NCBI GenBank assembly: GCA_026014585.1
Contig: JAOZIA010000024.1
Span: 434,001-498,000, forward strand
DNA: 64,000 nucleotides
From: Candidatus Bathyarchaeota archaeon
GTDB taxonomy: Archaea > Thermoproteota > Bathyarchaeia > Bathyarchaeales > Bathycorpusculaceae
Reading direction: 5' to 3'
Part shown: positions 49,360 to 59,607 of the stretch, piece after piece
How positions within the stretch are numbered: the first letter of the stretch is position 1
Layout of the letters: the number at the start of each line of letters is the position of its first letter
Notes under the pieces: generated by a model
What the model was told of the DNA's origin: nothing
What the model saw: only the letters and a program-made list of their open reading frames with translations
Database searches by the model: none
Position numbers and translations under genes: made by a program

Positions 49360-50184
49360 ATGCGTAAATCTGAGCTTGTGTCAATAATTTTAGTTGTAGC
49401 CTTAATCGCCTCAGTGATTACCAATGTCTACTTTGCAAACCAAAACCTAACCCTAAACAATCAAACCGCTGCACAGGCAAGAGTCGACATGACCACCACC
49501 TTAACACAAGCCCAAGTAAACATAACCGCAGAGTTAGAACACATTGGCACAAGTTTGGTTTATGCCTCAAACCAGCTATCCGCTGCAGGTTTAACGGGTG
49601 ACCAAACTGACGCAATTTTGTCTGACTTGGCATCTAACAGTTCCTTTATAATTAATGCGGCAACCGTGAATTTGGATAACACAATCGTGGCTGTTGCACC
49701 TGCCAACTGGAGCTACATAATAGGCAGAAACGTGGGCGAACAAACTTACTACTTAAATCCCGTTGGTGAAATTTCGCCTGTGATGACGCCAGTTGTAGCC
49801 GTACAGTCGGATTTGATGGCTAACATTGTTGCTGCTCCCATCTTTAACAATCAACAACAATTTATTGGCACAGTTTCTGTAATCTTTAATCCGCACGTTC
49901 TTATCGGTGCCTGTGCTTCTGATGCATTGGACGGTAAACCTTACGAGTTAATCGGTATGCAACTTGACGGCTTGATGATTTATGATTCCGACCCTGAGCA
50001 GCAGTGGCGCAACATGTTCACTGACCCTGCTTACGCCAACTTTACGGAGCTTTTAGCGCTTGGACACCGAGTCGTGGCTGCCCCGTCAGGGTATGGCACA
50101 TACAACTTCAACTTAATTGGCTCCACAGAGGTTGCTCACAAGGAATGTTACTGGACAACTGTTGCAGTTTTTGGGCAGCAATGA
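49360..50184 (+). CDS. Membrane-anchored Cache-type sensor domain protein
   Basis: This 274-residue protein has one N-terminal membrane helix (LVSIILVVALIASVITNVYF) and an external alpha/beta domain with a long first helix and a PVMTPVVAV, IVAAPIFNNQQQFIGTVSVIFNP core. This is the Cache (small-ligand) sensor look. There is no cytoplasmic signalling domain, so it can only signal through partners or serve as a binding protein. It is a tandem paralog of 50296-51132. Confidence 0.65.
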   Translation: MRKSELVSIILVVALIASVITNVYFANQNLTLNNQTAAQARVDMTTTLTQAQVNITAELEHIGTSLVYASNQLSAAGLTGDQTDAILSDLASNSSFIINAATVNLDNTIVAVAPANWSYIIGRNVGEQTYYLNPVGEISPVMTPVVAVQSDLMANIVAAPIFNNQQQFIGTVSVIFNPHVLIGACASDALDGKPYELIGMQLDGLMIYDSDPEQQWRNMFTDPAYANFTELLALGHRVVAAPSGYGTYNFNLIGSTEVAHKECYWTTVAVFGQQ

Positions 50185-50255
50185 CGGTTGGCTTTGAATC
50201 ATGCATTATAGATAAGTGATGTGGCTGGTTTTTGTTGTGAAAGTCTTATTATCAA

Positions 50256-50267
50256 GTTATCAATAAC
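50256..50267 (+). promoter_or_regulatory. Inverted repeat GTTA-N4-TAAC, probable operator, copy 2
   Basis: GTTATCAATAAC lies 28 bases before the ATG at 50296, followed by the shared ACTTGTATCT..AATAGGAA stretch. It matches copy 1 in sequence and spacing. Confidence 0.5.
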
Positions 50268-50295
50268 TTGTATCTTTAATAGGAAGAAACCAACG

Positions 50296-51132
50296 ATGAG
50301 TAAATTTAAACTTGTAGCAATAATTTTGGCTGTAGCACTAATTGCATCAGTAATTGCCAATGTTTATCTGGTAACTCAAACTTCGCCTAATCAATCAACA
50401 AACGATACAGTCAGAGTCGGAATGGTCGACACAATCAATCAAATACAAGTTCAAGCCGACGCAGAAATAGACCGCATGGGACAAAGCCTAATCTACGCAT
50501 CCGAACAACTTACCACATCAGGATTAACAGGTACCCAAGCAGACACAATCCTTAGCGCTTTAGCAGCAAATAGCACGTTTATTGTTGATGCAGGGACACA
50601 AAACTTAGACCGCATAATGGTCGCAGTACAACCCCCAGAATACAATAGCATAATAGGCATGGATGTCGGCGAACAAAAATGGTTAAACCCCAATCCTCTC
50701 AGTGCAATCACGCCAGTAATGACGCCAGTTATACCGATGGTTGAAAACTTTAGTGGTGTAGCAATAGCCGCGCCAGTCTTTGACAGCAACAGAGACCTAA
50801 TTGGCGTAGTAAGCGTAATCTTTGACCCACAAGTACTTCTAGATGCAGTAATCTCTGAGGTAACTCAAGACCCGCAATACGAATTCACAGTCATGCAACC
50901 AAACGGGTTAATGATGTTTGATTCAAACCCCGATGCACAAGGCAAAAACCTCTTCACAAACTCAGAATTCGCAGACAACACTGACATCATAAATGTAGGA
51001 CACCAAATCGCACAAGACAGCGCTGGATATAGCACATATGCAACTGGTGATGACCAGCAAAAACAGTGCTACTGGAACACAATTAGCAACTACGGCGGCG
51101 AATGGCGGCTGATAATCCACCATATCCTCTAA
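50296..51132 (+). CDS. Membrane-anchored Cache-type sensor domain protein, paralog
   Basis: The ATG at 50296 gives 278 residues; an open frame from 50221 runs through the promoter and is rejected. N-terminal helix VAIILAVALIASVIANVYLV, then a Cache-like domain with ITPVMTPVIPM and VAIAAPVFDSNRDLIGVVSVIFDPQ. It aligns along its whole length with 49360-50184, so it is a tandem duplication including the promoter. No signalling domain. Confidence 0.65.
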   Translation: MSKFKLVAIILAVALIASVIANVYLVTQTSPNQSTNDTVRVGMVDTINQIQVQADAEIDRMGQSLIYASEQLTTSGLTGTQADTILSALAANSTFIVDAGTQNLDRIMVAVQPPEYNSIIGMDVGEQKWLNPNPLSAITPVMTPVIPMVENFSGVAIAAPVFDSNRDLIGVVSVIFDPQVLLDAVISEVTQDPQYEFTVMQPNGLMMFDSNPDAQGKNLFTNSEFADNTDIINVGHQIAQDSAGYSTYATGDDQQKQCYWNTISNYGGEWRLIIHHIL

Positions 51133-53407: not shown

Positions 53408-56400
53408 TTAAGAATATCGTCTGACCCTTGTTGCCTGTGGACCAACCATGTTAAAAATTATGCCAAATGAAACTCGCTCTCCTCCGTGAAAAGTTCCCTC
53501 AATGTCCTGTCGTCTAACTTGTAGGGGACCACGATAGCCGTGTAATGAGGTACATTCAATTTTGCCATATTTCCCATATGTAGGAGGATCAATTAGAATC
53601 CCCAAAATTTCTTTTAGTTCCCCTCTTTCATTCCACCGATTTTCAGGACTCTGTGTTAATCTCATTGGGTGGTCTTTAGTGCGTTCTTCAAGTTCCTTAA
53701 ACAATGCTGAAGCCGTCTTGTAATCACTATTTTTAAAAGTACACATTGCAAGTTCGAAAGATAATGGGACATCAAATCTTTTATCGGCTAATCTAACATA
53801 ATCTTGTAAGGCGATTGATATTTTTTGATTATCTTCAGGGTTTTGTTTTTTAATTAAATAAACATTTAAACGAATTAGCCATAGTAAAGATGGATCTTCT
53901 TTCAGCCCTTTTGCCACATAAATGATTGCCTTTGGATAATTTTCAAGTCTGATTGCCTCTTCTGCAAGAAATGCAAAAGCAGCCCCTTTACCGACTTGAG
54001 CCCTTATCCTGCTAATTTTTTCCTCATCCAACTTCATTGAATAGAGTAGCTCTAAAACTTCTTTTTTTAGAGAGGATAACCCAAAATTCCTATTCACACC
54101 CAGATATTTTTCCGTATAAACACATTCTTGCATAGCTAGTAATAGGTAACACCATCGAGTTTCATCATCGTCAGCTATCTTTGCTTTGTTCACATAAGTC
54201 TTGCCTAAACCTTGATATGGATGTGGTGTCGCTGAAGGGCTTATTTGGGCATCATAGAAATAATTTTGAGCTTTTTCAAAATGGTCCCATGCTTTAGATT
54301 TATCTTTATCCTTGATGGCTACTTCGCCCAATTTGAGTTCTAATCTTCCTTTGACATCTATAACATGCTCTTCAGGCTCGTCAAAATCAGGGATATGGGC
54401 AGACATAGCTTCTCTCAAAGTTTCAGCCGCCAATTCTGGTTTATCGGAGCGTACCTGAAGCATAGCAAGATGAAGCAAAAGGGGTCTAGAACGTACTGTA
54501 CTGACTGCGTTTTTTAATAACTCTAATTTTTCTTGAGGCTTTAGGTGTGTTCCAAGTTCGCCTCGTAACCGCTCGGTTAATAGCAGGTGAAGTAAGGTCA
54601 TTTCCAATTTGTTTCCTAAATTGACTGACTTTACAATATTTCTCAAGGTGTTATATAGTTGATCTGAAGTTTTGAAAGTATGGCGAGCTATTATATCGGC
54701 AACAACTCTATTTGCAGTTACTATCTCATATTCCCCGGATCGATATTGTAAAACGCCACCTAAGCGCCCCTTTTCTAGCTCTGCATCTAACCAATCTTTA
54801 TTTTGTCGACTCGCTGATAATGTTAAACTTACTGGTGGCGTTAATATTTGAGATTGGAGTAAAGACACAATCGAATAGGTCACTCGAGAAGGTTCGTCCA
54901 AAGTTAATAACTCATCAGTAATTATGTCTTCTAGGGATTTTTGCACCCCTTTCACGGTAGTAAAAATTAAAGCAAAAAAGGATGTGTTTATGGTTTTATC
55001 AGCTAGATTTAATGACAACAATTCTCTATTCAAAACATCTAAATCACCGAAATGATTAATAAAATCACCCCATTCGTCACGCCTAACTGTATCATCAACT
55101 GACAAAATCAAGTCAACATTGGCTCTTTTTATTTTAGCAATTGAAAGATCGGTGATTCGAGTAACCAACAAAATATCAACGGGCTTACCAACCCCTTTTA
55201 AGTGACCACTTGTTTCTATGAGTTGTTCTAACAAAGCACCACAATCATCGGCAACTAAAAGAAATCTTAAAGGGGCAGGATTTGGGAGTTTAGTTTTTGT
55301 TATTTCACTTCGGTATTTTTCCCATATTTCATCAAGTAAACCATCTAGCGCAAGTTTATCAAGTGTTTGTGTTTCGGGGTCTATAAAAATCACCGGGTTT
55401 CCACTTCGATACCAATCAAATGCAATTCGATTAGCGACAACTGTTTTACCAGACCCAGCAGTACCCACTAATGAAACAACAATATTATGGGAGGAATTGC
55501 CATCTTGAGTACGTTTATTGAAAGTTTCCGTATCAAACTCTTTTAATTGGTTATTTGAAAAATCTGTTCTTTTTATTTTTCTTTTAAAATCCCAATTTGC
55601 CACAAAAGGATAAAAAGATTGGTCATGCCCTTCAAAGAAGTGTTTATAATCCTTGGAAAAAGGTTCGAGCATTGTTACGTCAAAGATTCTGAATTTTCGC
55701 CAAGTATTATCTACAGTTGCCCTGTCTAGTTGCATAGGAATATTATGAACGTTAAACTGATTTACTATTGAAGCAGCACTAACAGGTACAAGACCAAAAA
55801 TTGAAACTGCGGTTTTTACAAAATCTTCAACACTACCCTTAACCCAAGTGATTCCGAGCTTTTCCATTTTCTTTAAAACAGGTTCGTCTGGTTTGTCAGG
55901 CATTATTGCATAACTTTTCCAAGGTATTGCCTTTAAAACGAATCTCATTTCTTGCAACAGGTCAAAAACAAGATTATCTTTGAATGAGTAACCAAGATAA
56001 ATAATACTTCCTGAAGAAGAGAGGCTATGGAACATTTTAAAAAATATAGACCGCCTGTCAAATGCTATTTTGAGATCATTGGACGATAAGACCATCCAAC
56101 CGCCATGCGCGAAGGTATAATTGATGTCCCCAAGAAGTTTAAAGCAGTATAAGACATCTGGTTTGCTCGGATCTATTGGATAATCAACTTCTGGATTAAC
56201 AACTGGTACAATTAGCCGCCTAGCGTCTAAACTTTTTGTAATCAAATTTGGTAAATTGTCATAATTAGTAGTAATAACAGCCCGCCAAGGCATTGAAAAA
56301 AGATATTTGTGCATCTCCAGAGGAGAAATAAGAGATAAGCTCTGTTTTATTTTCGACTCTATTTCATTTCTATTAAAATTATCAAAATCAATAGTATCTT

Positions 56401-56581
56401 GCATAAAACTGAAGAAATCAGCAGCCTTACTTTCAACATACTGTTTTTTAAGGGCGGTTAATAATTGCTCGCCATTGGGGCCACCGCAACTTACACAAAC
56501 TCCAGCACCATAAAAAAGACTAGTTGGTTTCTTTTGCATCTCTCTAATAACTTCTGAAAGCTCCAACCCGATTACACCCAT
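53408..56581 (-). CDS. SIR2-STAND-TPR protein with C-terminal cold-shock-like domain (probable defence protein)
   Basis: A 1057-residue protein. Residues 1-265 are a SIR2 fold: GAGVCVSCG (25-33), TTNYD (104-108), IIYLGYSFKD near 193. The usual KLHGD reads KLLGD, so the catalytic His is Leu150. A linker is followed by a STAND-type NTPase: Walker A GTAGSGKT (373-380), Walker B FLLVADDCG (about 440-448). From about 690 helical TPR-like repeats run to about 990. The last 54 residues (KYGKIECTSLHGYRG, DIEGTFHGGERVSF, GPQATRV) look like a cold-shock OB domain. SIR2-STAND proteins (Avs5-type) sense phage proteins and deplete NAD. Flanked by ino1 and leuS; it looks A+T-richer than they do. Confidence 0.8.
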   Translation of the reverse strand: MGVIGLELSEVIREMQKKPTSLFYGAGVCVSCGGPNGEQLLTALKKQYVESKAADFFSFMQDTIDFDNFNRNEIESKIKQSLSLISPLEMHKYLFSMPWRAVITTNYDNLPNLITKSLDARRLIVPVVNPEVDYPIDPSKPDVLYCFKLLGDINYTFAHGGWMVLSSNDLKIAFDRRSIFFKMFHSLSSSGSIIYLGYSFKDNLVFDLLQEMRFVLKAIPWKSYAIMPDKPDEPVLKKMEKLGITWVKGSVEDFVKTAVSIFGLVPVSAASIVNQFNVHNIPMQLDRATVDNTWRKFRIFDVTMLEPFSKDYKHFFEGHDQSFYPFVANWDFKRKIKRTDFSNNQLKEFDTETFNKRTQDGNSSHNIVVSLVGTAGSGKTVVANRIAFDWYRSGNPVIFIDPETQTLDKLALDGLLDEIWEKYRSEITKTKLPNPAPLRFLLVADDCGALLEQLIETSGHLKGVGKPVDILLVTRITDLSIAKIKRANVDLILSVDDTVRRDEWGDFINHFGDLDVLNRELLSLNLADKTINTSFFALIFTTVKGVQKSLEDIITDELLTLDEPSRVTYSIVSLLQSQILTPPVSLTLSASRQNKDWLDAELEKGRLGGVLQYRSGEYEIVTANRVVADIIARHTFKTSDQLYNTLRNIVKSVNLGNKLEMTLLHLLLTERLRGELGTHLKPQEKLELLKNAVSTVRSRPLLLHLAMLQVRSDKPELAAETLREAMSAHIPDFDEPEEHVIDVKGRLELKLGEVAIKDKDKSKAWDHFEKAQNYFYDAQISPSATPHPYQGLGKTYVNKAKIADDDETRWCYLLLAMQECVYTEKYLGVNRNFGLSSLKKEVLELLYSMKLDEEKISRIRAQVGKGAAFAFLAEEAIRLENYPKAIIYVAKGLKEDPSLLWLIRLNVYLIKKQNPEDNQKISIALQDYVRLADKRFDVPLSFELAMCTFKNSDYKTASALFKELEERTKDHPMRLTQSPENRWNERGELKEILGILIDPPTYGKYGKIECTSLHGYRGPLQVRRQDIEGTFHGGERVSFGIIFNMVGPQATRVRRYS

Positions 56582-56724: not shown

Positions 56725-59607
56725 TTATTCTATGTAGATTGCTGGTTGATATGGCAACGCGTTCGCGGCGCGGTTTTTGGGGTCAAAGCGTTCAGCGTCG
56801 TTTTCAGCGTAAACTTGTACTTCAGCGTTAAATCTGTCTTTTAAGAAATCCGTTGCGCCTTGCACGGTTGCTTTTTGGTCGGCTAAGCCGATTTTGAGCA
56901 TGTTGGCTTTTCTTTCGCCTGAGAGTTTTGTTAAGCCCTTGATTACTTTGGGCACTAAGGCGGCAATGTTTTTCATGTGTGGCTTCAATGTGGGGTCTTG
57001 GCTGAATTCGCGCATGAGTTCGTTGATTTTAGCTTCTCCCGAGACGGTTTTTTCTACGATTTTGAGGTAAACTTGCCATTTCCAGTCTGCTGCGGTGTAG
57101 TAAACGATGGTTTTTGGTTCGATTTTCATGGCTTTTAGGATGTTTTGGGTATCATCCAGTATGTCCTGCACAAGGTTCTCGTGCTCTACTGCGGCAACAT
57201 CAACTTTCGCATCATCTAAGCTTGGCCAAGCGGCTGTGCTTATGAAGCCTTCCTCACCTGTTTGACTCCACAATTCCTCACACATAAACGGAGCAAAAGG
57301 CGCCAAAAGTTTCAGCCAATCCTTCACTGCATCCACCAAAACCTTGTTGTCTGTGCTGCCTTTGCGTTGAATATACCAGCGCAAATCATTCCAAACCTCA
57401 AAAAGCGCCACCTGCAAGGAAGTACGGGTTTTTAGTTCGCTTAAGTTGGTGGTTACTTCACCTATGCGATGCTGCATACGGCTAATTAGCCAGCGCTCCA
57501 AAACACCTTCTTCATCGTTTTTGGCGTTAGTGATTATTTGGCTGGCAAAACTCATCAATCCGCCAAACTTTATCTGCAAATCCTTAACGTTGTCAGCGCG
57601 CCAGTCAGGGTCATCCATACCCTCCGCACCCAACAACAAAGCGCACCTTGTAGCGTCTGCGCCATATTTTTCTACGGCGCCTTTCATGGTGATGAAGTTG
57701 CCTTTGCTCTTGTGCATGCCTTCACCCTCAACCATTAGCATACCGTTGACGCCGATAGCGCGGGGCCAGTGTTCGGGTGGGAAGAGTGCGGCGTGGTGGA
57801 AGACGCAGAAGGATAGGTGGTTGGGTACGAGTTCTTTGGCTGAATTTCGCAGGTCCAGTGGGTACCAGTAGAGGAATTCGCTACGCATTGCATCCAGCAA
57901 ATCCACAGAGATACCGCTGGTTTGGGCAAGAGCGGTTTTGTCGCCTTTTCCATAGAAAATGTAATCAAAAACCTCAGGCGTTAGGGATTCGGGTTGGATG
58001 TTGTTTTGGCGGATGTGCTTGTTTATGGTGTAGAATGCCATGTATACGGTGCTGTCGCTTAGGGTTTCAATTATCCAGCCTTTTCCCCAAGGCATAGGCG
58101 TTCCAAACCCAGTGGTTCGCGCACAAGCCCATTCCCGCAGCCAATCAATAACCGTGTTAAACCAGGGTTTTGCTACGTCGGGGTAAATGTTCATTTGGTT
58201 AATGGCTTGGTGGGCTTTTTGTTTCCAGCCCTCATCGGAGTAGTTGAGGAACCATTGGTCTGAGAGAATCTTGACTAAGCAGGGGGTCATGCAGCGGCAG
58301 ATGACGGGTTCAGGCAAATCGTACATGCGGTCAGCTACGCCTGCTTTTTTGAAGTCGGCGATTAGGATGTCTTTTATTTCTCGAACAGTTTTGCCTGCGT
58401 AAGGTCCACAGGTGTCTTTGAGTTTTCCGCTGTGGAACTCTTTTTTGTAGAGCGTGTTGGTTGCTTCGTCACCTTTCTTGTCATGCTGGTTAACTATGCC
58501 CATTTGCTCCACGATTTCAACTGCGGGGTAATCACCGTAACCGTCCACTTTAATGATGGAAACAGGCTTAATCGCCCTCACCATTTCAGGGTCAACACCA
58601 AAATCCTTGAGAACATCGGGTTTTTGCTGCAAATCCCGAAGAGCCAACCAGTCAAAAGGCGCATGCGCAGGAACACTGTAGACTACGCCTGTGGCGACTT
58701 TGGGGTCAACAAACCAGCCGGGCAGAATCGGGAAGGTGGCTTTGGTTATGGGGTTTTGGAAGGTTTTGCCGATGAGTTCTTTGCCTTTGAATTCGCGCTG
58801 GATTCGGATGGTTTTTTCTTGTTCTTTAAGTTTCTCAGAGGCTTCTTTGCTGATTATCCAAGTTTCCCCATTAACGTTGGCTTGTACGTAGGTGGCGTCG
58901 GGGTTTATCCAGATGTTAGTTATGCCGTAGATTGTTTCAGGCCGGAAGGTTGCCGCGGGCAAAAATGTACCATCAGCTAGCACGTACTTGATTAGGGTGT
59001 ATTCTTCAGGTGTTACGCCTTCGCCGCTTTGCCTGTCATGGTCGCCTGTTGGGCTGTTATCTTTGGGACACCAAACTACTGGGTGGGTGCCTTTGGTGAC
59101 GTAGCCTTTTTCTTTGAGGTTCTTGTATTGCCATTCAATGAATTTTTGGAAGGTAGGCCAAACTGTTGTGAATTCGCGGCGCCAATCCACCGAGAAACCA
59201 ATACTCTTAACCGCCAGGCGCCCTCCGTTAGTGTAATACTGAGCCATATAGAGAGGGTCAACAAACTTTTTAAGCTCTGATTCAGGGACCCCGTCAACTT
59301 CACGTAAAACTTTGATGTATGCTTGGTCTCCTCGGGCAACACGTTCGCTAGCGCCAAGCAATGGTTGTCCTGTCCAGTGCCAAGCCCATGGCCAGAGCAC
59401 ATTGCAGCCTTGCATGCGTTTAAAGCGTGCGTATGCGTCCACGCGGGAGGCAGTGAAGGTGTGTCCAACGTGTAGTGGACCGTTCATGTATGGAAATGGA
59501 AAAGTCACCATGACTTTTTGTCTTTGAGGGTCGGGGTCGGCTTCGAAAATGCGGGCGGTTTCCCATTTGGACTGCCATTTCTGTTCCATTTGCTTGGTTT
59601 GGCTCAT
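56725..59607 (-). CDS. leuS: Leucyl-tRNA synthetase, archaeal type
   Basis: A 960-residue class I enzyme. HIGH-type PYMNGPLHVGHTFTASR near 45, a CP1 editing domain (TFRPETIYGITNIWINPD, GTGVVYSVPAHAPFDWLAL), WALEHWPR-like region, KMSKS-type GMHKSKGNFIT, and a C-terminal anticodon/tail region. The editing domain position is that of archaeal/eukaryal LeuRS. ATG at 59607. Divergent from the polyprenyl synthetase gene. Normal length, complete. Confidence 0.96.
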   Translation of the reverse strand: MSQTKQMEQKWQSKWETARIFEADPDPQRQKVMVTFPFPYMNGPLHVGHTFTASRVDAYARFKRMQGCNVLWPWAWHWTGQPLLGASERVARGDQAYIKVLREVDGVPESELKKFVDPLYMAQYYTNGGRLAVKSIGFSVDWRREFTTVWPTFQKFIEWQYKNLKEKGYVTKGTHPVVWCPKDNSPTGDHDRQSGEGVTPEEYTLIKYVLADGTFLPAATFRPETIYGITNIWINPDATYVQANVNGETWIISKEASEKLKEQEKTIRIQREFKGKELIGKTFQNPITKATFPILPGWFVDPKVATGVVYSVPAHAPFDWLALRDLQQKPDVLKDFGVDPEMVRAIKPVSIIKVDGYGDYPAVEIVEQMGIVNQHDKKGDEATNTLYKKEFHSGKLKDTCGPYAGKTVREIKDILIADFKKAGVADRMYDLPEPVICRCMTPCLVKILSDQWFLNYSDEGWKQKAHQAINQMNIYPDVAKPWFNTVIDWLREWACARTTGFGTPMPWGKGWIIETLSDSTVYMAFYTINKHIRQNNIQPESLTPEVFDYIFYGKGDKTALAQTSGISVDLLDAMRSEFLYWYPLDLRNSAKELVPNHLSFCVFHHAALFPPEHWPRAIGVNGMLMVEGEGMHKSKGNFITMKGAVEKYGADATRCALLLGAEGMDDPDWRADNVKDLQIKFGGLMSFASQIITNAKNDEEGVLERWLISRMQHRIGEVTTNLSELKTRTSLQVALFEVWNDLRWYIQRKGSTDNKVLVDAVKDWLKLLAPFAPFMCEELWSQTGEEGFISTAAWPSLDDAKVDVAAVEHENLVQDILDDTQNILKAMKIEPKTIVYYTAADWKWQVYLKIVEKTVSGEAKINELMREFSQDPTLKPHMKNIAALVPKVIKGLTKLSGERKANMLKIGLADQKATVQGATDFLKDRFNAEVQVYAENDAERFDPKNRAANALPYQPAIYIE

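What the first reader, a model, noticed from the sequence alone, without database searches (positions are those of the whole stretch)
53408..56581. SIR2-STAND-TPR defence-like protein ending in a cold-shock domain, with the SIR2 catalytic His replaced
Seen: SIR2 motifs (GAGV, TTNYD) but KLLGD where defence SIR2 domains have KLHGD, an intact Walker A/B NTPase, a TPR-like region, and a last 54 residues matching the cold-shock pattern (GKI...GYRG...DIEGTF..GERVSF...GPQATRV). Known: Avs5-type SIR2-STAND proteins sense phage proteins through C-terminal repeats and deplete NAD. Inference: here the C-terminal OB domain may sense or bind RNA or single-stranded DNA, and the SIR2 domain may not hydrolyse NAD in the usual way. 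It stands alone between ino1 and leuS.
Basis: partly seen in the sequence, partly recalled or inferred. Interest (0 to 1): 0.8.

Follow-up and report, generated by a model that had tools for sequence, protein, structure and literature searches.

The report
Archaeal SAMD9-like sensor with altered sirtuin
A rare bathyarchaeal protein is built like the core of the human antiviral protein SAMD9 and of bacterial phage-defence receptors (sirtuin, ATPase switch, helical repeats, cold-shock domain), but its small clade has swapped the sirtuin's catalytic histidine for a greasy residue while keeping the rest of the pocket, so what the sirtuin part does there is an open question.

Summary
Window 53408-56581 (-) encodes an intact 1057-aa protein: SIR2_2, STAND NTPase, TPR-like helices and a C-terminal cold-shock domain. 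The cold-shock call is firm: a family profile matches solved cold-shock proteins down to E 3.5e-11, the AlphaFold model of the C-terminus is a five-strand barrel (pLDDT 84) whose top PDB matches are Csp proteins, and a phage-borne relative passes Pfam's CSD cut-off.
The SIR2 catalytic His is replaced by Leu150. A 40%-identical bathyarchaeal ortholog also has Leu and a more distant bathyarchaeal member Met; the three form one clade (support 100/99). Relatives in Mu-like and P4-like elements, plasmids and this genome's own paralog have His or Asn. His159 does not substitute: it is Gln in the ortholog. The other pocket residues are kept and the domain's constraint is not relaxed.
The architecture is the known SAMD9-family core (Mekhedov 2017) without AlbA/tRNase; Foldseek ranks Avs5 and human SAMD9 first. 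Solved Avs5 chains lack the cold-shock domain.
Best reading: a horizontally acquired STAND defence receptor whose SIR2 domain probably binds NAD or oligomerises rather than hydrolysing NAD in the usual way. Defence function, ligand and loss of NADase activity are inferred, not shown.

The parts
53408..56581 (-). Whole gene, 1057 aa: SIR2-STAND-TPR-CSD protein
   Evidence: full-length ortholog L003 40% identity
55787..56581 (-). SIR2_2 domain (aa 1-265)
   Evidence: Pfam E 4.9e-10; PADLOC ThsA E 1.7e-16; phmmer to solved SeThsA 7uxt E 1.2e-6
56132..56134 (-). Codon CTT = Leu150 in place of the catalytic His (KLLGD)
56258..56266 (-). Asn106, Tyr107, Asp108 (TTNYD) retained
   Evidence: N106 and D108 invariant in the family
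54662..55501 (-). STAND NTPase region (aa 361-640)
   Evidence: nSTAND_NTPase5 E 7.7e-8; most bacterial relatives E 1e-20 to 1e-31
55442..55465 (-). Walker A (aa 373-380, GTAGSGKT)
55244..55261 (-). Walker B (aa 441-446, LLVADD)
53627..54661 (-). TPR-like helical region (aa 641-985), putative sensor
   Evidence: AF2 helices; weak TPR hits
53411..53626 (-). Cold-shock (OB) domain (aa 986-1057; strands 992-1055)

Best explanation
This is a single-gene STAND-type immune receptor with the SAMD9-core architecture (SIR2-STAND-TPR-cold-shock), acquired horizontally by a few bathyarchaea. The TPR/cold-shock end would sense an infection cue, the intact ATPase would switch the protein to an oligomer, and the SIR2 domains would be brought together. 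In this clade the SIR2 pocket keeps its NAD-binding residues and Asn106/Asp108 but has Leu or Met where His or Asn is needed in tested relatives. It is therefore most likely not a normal NAD hydrolase; it probably binds NAD or a derivative, and/or serves as the oligomerisation platform. Shown: architecture, kinship, the clade-wide substitution and unrelaxed constraint. Inferred: defence role, ligand, oligomer, loss of NADase activity.
For: Domains. Foldseek of the full model: EfAvs5 (SIR2-STAND) E 3.2e-20, human SAMD9 E 1.6e-19, then DSR2 and ThsA. Relatives lie on mobile elements: Mu-like phage cargo (GemA, Mor; L066), a P4-like element between primase and integrase (L122), plasmids. The own-genome paralog L004 lies about 1.4 kb from a CAP12/Pycsar TIR effector. 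Patchy: 3 bathyarchaeal genomes of the 257 in the class search carry a member. GC 36.8% against 47-49% in the two neighbour genes. ino1-leuS adjacency not seen in relatives. His column: L, L, M in one clade (100/99), N in its neighbour clade, H in 12 bacterial rows. SIR2 identity ratio to the rest 1.36 for window/ortholog against 0.90-1.32 in His/Asn control pairs. PaAvs5: N153A and N153Q abolish defence, N153H only partly active (PMC12931631).
Against: No experiment on any family member was found. SIR2 domains can tolerate Asn at this position, so another mechanism cannot be excluded. Only three proteins carry L or M. The window and ortholog genes lie next to housekeeping genes, not in an obvious defence island. 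The full-length AF2 model is moderate (pLDDT 73.7, pTM 0.45) and is not a test of activity.
Confidence: 0.58

Rival explanations
1. It is still an NAD hydrolase: Asn106/Asp108 and the acidic D202 do the chemistry and the His position is dispensable, as a natural extension of the NG variant of Avs5.
For: All other pocket residues are kept; about half of Avs5 homologs have NG, and the tested NG protein works; constraint on the domain is unchanged.
Against: In PaAvs5, Ala or Gln at this position abolishes defence; H206A or N163A in FAM118B prevents the activity of the FAM118A/B pair. Leu and Met side chains cannot do the hydrogen bonding of His or Asn.
Confidence: 0.25
2. The SIR2 domain is simply decaying and the gene is on its way to being a pseudogene.
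For: A catalytic residue is lost; the gene is rare.
Against: Intact reading frames in all three members; hydrophobic residue inherited in one clade; SIR2 is the most conserved domain between window and ortholog.
Confidence: 0.05
3. The His-less protein works as a subunit with an active SIR2 partner, such as the own-genome NG paralog, like the FAM118A/B pair.
For: The own genome has both an LG and an NG member; FAM118A and B need each other.
Against: The other two genomes with L/M members show only one SIR2_2 gene each (completeness 90% and 88%), and in FAM118 both partners need an intact His.
Confidence: 0.1

Closest known systems
SAMD9/SAMD9L family core (Mekhedov et al. 2017, PMC5445408)
   Same: Order variant SIR2 - STAND-like P-loop - TPR - C-terminal OB domain most similar to cold-shock proteins; second best Foldseek match to the full model (9zjw, E 1.6e-19).
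   Different: No AlbA/tRNase, SAM or kinase domain at the N-terminus; Walker A Lys intact (SAMD9 has GGT/S); archaeal host, which the paper does not report.
Avs5 (AVAST type 5, SIR2-STAND)
   Same: SIR2_2 + STAND + helical repeats; best Foldseek match (9jap, E 3.2e-20); Avs5 also tolerates loss of the catalytic His (NG).
   Different: Avs5 is described with nSTAND3 and a repeat C-terminus only; here nSTAND_NTPase5 and a cold-shock domain; Leu or Met, not Asn.
Plasmid- and phage-borne 'SIR2 family protein' of about 1035-1106 aa (e.g. WP_068039562.1; P4-like and Mu-like elements)
   Same: Same four-domain architecture throughout; direct homologs.
   Different: HG or NG motif; better kept cold-shock RNP motifs; function untested as far as found.
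ThsA (Thoeris), DSR2, KomC
   Same: Related SIR2 domain.
   Different: Different partner domains; catalytic His present.

Membership tests
SIR2_2 (PF13289) defence sirtuins | Pfam profile match above cut-off | tested here: met
   40.1 bits against 24.5
SIR2_2 (PF13289) defence sirtuins | Catalytic His (HG) or Asn (NG) | tested here: not met
   Leu150; ortholog Leu, L034 Met
SIR2_2 (PF13289) defence sirtuins | NAD hydrolysis | not testable with these tools
   needs an assay
STAND NTPases | Walker A, Walker B and sensor Arg intact, with effector and repeat domains | tested here: met
   motifs; nSTAND_NTPase5 E 7.7e-8 (just under cut-off), relatives above it
Avs5 | SIR2 + nSTAND3 + repeat C-terminus, without a cold-shock domain | tested here: not met
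   nSTAND3 E only 0.012; C-terminal CSD present
SAMD9 family | SIR2-STAND-TPR-OB core in this order | tested here: met
SAMD9 family | AlbA_2/tRNase upstream of SIR2 (lost in some members; kinase instead in many bacterial ones) | tested here: not met
   SIR2 starts at about residue 10; no AlbA hit
SAMD9 family | Walker A Lys replaced by Gly | tested here: not met
   Lys379 present
SAMD9 family | Groups with SAMD9 in a sequence tree | not tested
   SAMD9 sequences were not in the collected set
Cold-shock domain (PF00313) | Five-strand OB fold and profile kinship to Csp proteins | tested here: met
   (L064 E 9.5e-9)
Cold-shock domain (PF00313) | RNP1/RNP2 aromatic nucleic-acid-binding residues | tested here: not met
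   GKYGKIEC/PLQVRR against KGFGFI/VFVHF; better kept in relatives such as L049 and L064

The most novel reading that the evidence does not exclude
A clade of archaeal SAMD9-like receptors has turned its SIR2 domain from an NAD-destroying effector into something else (NAD/ADP-ribose-gated switch, filament scaffold, or a new reaction) by a His/Asn-to-Leu/Met change in an otherwise conserved pocket.
Probability: 0.45. Interest if true: 0.7.

Novelty: new variant of a known kind. Interest (0 to 1): 0.5.

Why it matters
SAMD9 is an important human antiviral and disease protein; the contribution of its SIR2 region is described as unclear and the functions of its bacterial relatives as hard to predict. 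This family gives simple prokaryotic versions of the same core with active-looking (HG, NG) and inactive-looking (LG, MG) SIR2 domains, so the role of each part can be tested. It also extends the architecture to archaea and to Mu-like and P4-like mobile elements, and the L/M clade is a natural test of whether the sirtuin His is needed at all in defence sirtuins.

Tried and rejected
Rejected: His159 as substitute (Gln in ortholog); chance match for the cold-shock domain; Avs5 membership (nSTAND3 and CSD tests); sequencing error (shared with ortholog); operon or partner gene (no shared neighbours between window, L003 and L034). The phylum search with the family profile gave many generic P-loop and TPR hits that were ignored.

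Full report
Observation. The gene at 53408-56581 (-) is an intact 1057-codon frame. Pfam finds SIR2_2 (E 4.9e-10, aa 101-245) and nSTAND_NTPase5 (E 7.7e-8); PADLOC's best match is ThsA (E 1.7e-16), and phmmer finds solved SeThsA. Motifs GAGVC, TTNYD, Walker A GTAGSGKT, Walker B LLVADD and a sensor Arg475 are present; the catalytic-His motif reads KLLGD.

Relatives. The only other full-length ortholog found is in another bathyarchaeal genome of the same genus (G019 = MAG FK_Sedi_B_Bin.165; 40% identity over the whole length). In the class, 15 of 257 genomes have a SIR2_2 gene, and only three genomes carry this architecture: the window's own genome (two copies, window and L004), G019 (L003) and G487 (L034). 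Bacterial relatives of the same length and layout occur on plasmids (Psychrobacter, Vibrio, Klebsiella, Methylobacterium, Acinetobacter) and in phage-like elements: L066 lies in a Mu-like phage (GemA, Mor, TniB-like ATPase) and L122 in a P4-like element between a Toprim primase and an integrase. L066 and the own-genome paralog L004 are 45% identical over their full length, so the family appears to move between bacteria and archaea on mobile elements (inference).

Cold-shock domain. Pfam misses it in the window protein but scores CSD E 9.5e-9 in L064, above the curated cut-off, and 5e-4 to 4e-3 in L113 and L048. A profile of family C-termini matches Csp proteins, and one built from the window, its ortholog and phage-borne rows matches solved cold-shock proteins at E 3.5e-11 to 1e-8; these test the family rather than the window protein alone. 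AlphaFold of aa 975-1057 gives five strands at pLDDT 84, and the top PDB matches are all cold-shock proteins (TM by target up to 0.79). The RNP motifs of the window clade are degenerate: GKYGKIEC for KGFGFI and PLQVRR for VFVHF, while relatives such as Klebsiella (IYVHY) and L064 (FGFI) keep more. Nucleic-acid sensing is therefore plausible for the family but weaker for this member.

The missing histidine. The column reads L (window, L003), M (L034), N (L004, L066, L050) and H (12 bacterial rows); the other sirtuins compared have H or N. On an IQ-TREE tree of 22 rows the L/L/M proteins form one clade (100/99) whose nearest neighbours are the N clade L004/L066 (86/87, not fully supported), and the state needs four changes. 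No histidine in the SIR2 domain is shared by window and ortholog; His159 is Gln in the ortholog. N106, D108, K148, G151 and G197 are kept in all 15 family rows compared, and D202 in all but the two N-type rows L004 and L066. Window and ortholog are 51% identical in SIR2 and 36-40% in the STAND, TPR and cold-shock regions; the ratio SIR2/rest (1.36) is at the top of, not below, the range of His- and Asn-bearing control pairs (0.90-1.32); comparisons of either with the distant L034 give 0.95 and 1.06. The domain is therefore not visibly decaying. In Avs5, NG occurs about as often as HG and the tested NG protein is active; Ala and Gln at that place abolish defence, and N110, D112 and E202 are essential (PMC12931631). 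Leu and Met have not been tested anywhere I found. Whether D202 here corresponds to Avs5 E202 was not tested.

Structure and closest known. The full-length model (pLDDT 73.7) matches EfAvs5 (E 3.2e-20) and human SAMD9 (E 1.6e-19) best, then DSR2 and ThsA; overall TM-scores are low (about 0.2), as expected if domain orientations differ. Mekhedov et al. (PMC5445408) described the SAMD9 core as AlbA - variant SIR2 - STAND - TPR - OB most similar to cold-shock proteins, in animals and bacteria; archaeal members are not mentioned. SAMD9's effector is the AlbA/tRNase (PMC12331169, PMC13245274), which is absent here, and its Walker A lacks the Lys that is present here.

Context. The gene is AT-rich (GC 36.8%, GC3 28%) against leuS (48.6%, 54%) and ino1 (47.2%, 46%); the ortholog shows the same contrast with its neighbour glyS. 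ino1 and leuS were not seen as neighbours in relatives, within the 1.5 kb of flank held. No neighbour is shared by window, L003 and L034. This fits independent horizontal acquisition of a stand-alone gene. The paralog L004 lies about 1.4 kb from a CAP12/Pycsar TIR effector.

Judgement. Architecture and kinship are shown. Horizontal mobility is well supported. A defence role is inferred from relatives. Loss of ordinary NAD hydrolysis is inferred from the residue and from published mutants of a relative. The finding is a new variant of a known kind; its interest lies in the SAMD9 connection and in the naturally His-less SIR2 clade.

Noticed in passing
L004:444-6126 (G000:C13, own genome): Own-genome paralog (1136 aa, KLNGS) with a CAP12/Pycsar TIR effector about 1.4 kb downstream and an ORF between them that looks integrase-like but has no Pfam hit; likely a defence island or integrated element.
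   Followed up: partly
window 56725-59607; L005:4192-5967; L034:1392-9305: All three L/M-clade genes lie near translation genes (leuS; glyS; ABCE1 and aIF2-alpha). May be chance; not tested statistically.
   Followed up: partly
L122, L123: HG members lie next to a phage integrase, in L122 with a Toprim primase on the other side (P4-like), a typical anti-phage cargo site; good candidates for a laboratory E. coli test.
   Followed up: partly
L114, L115, L116: Several plasmid copies (Pseudomonas, Acinetobacter, Klebsiella) are split into two or three annotated frames, so the gene seems to be broken repeatedly on plasmids.
   Followed up: no
window 49360-51132: Two adjacent, similar proteins (274 and 303 aa) with an N-terminal membrane segment and a Cache-like look, apparently a tandem duplication.
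   Followed up: no
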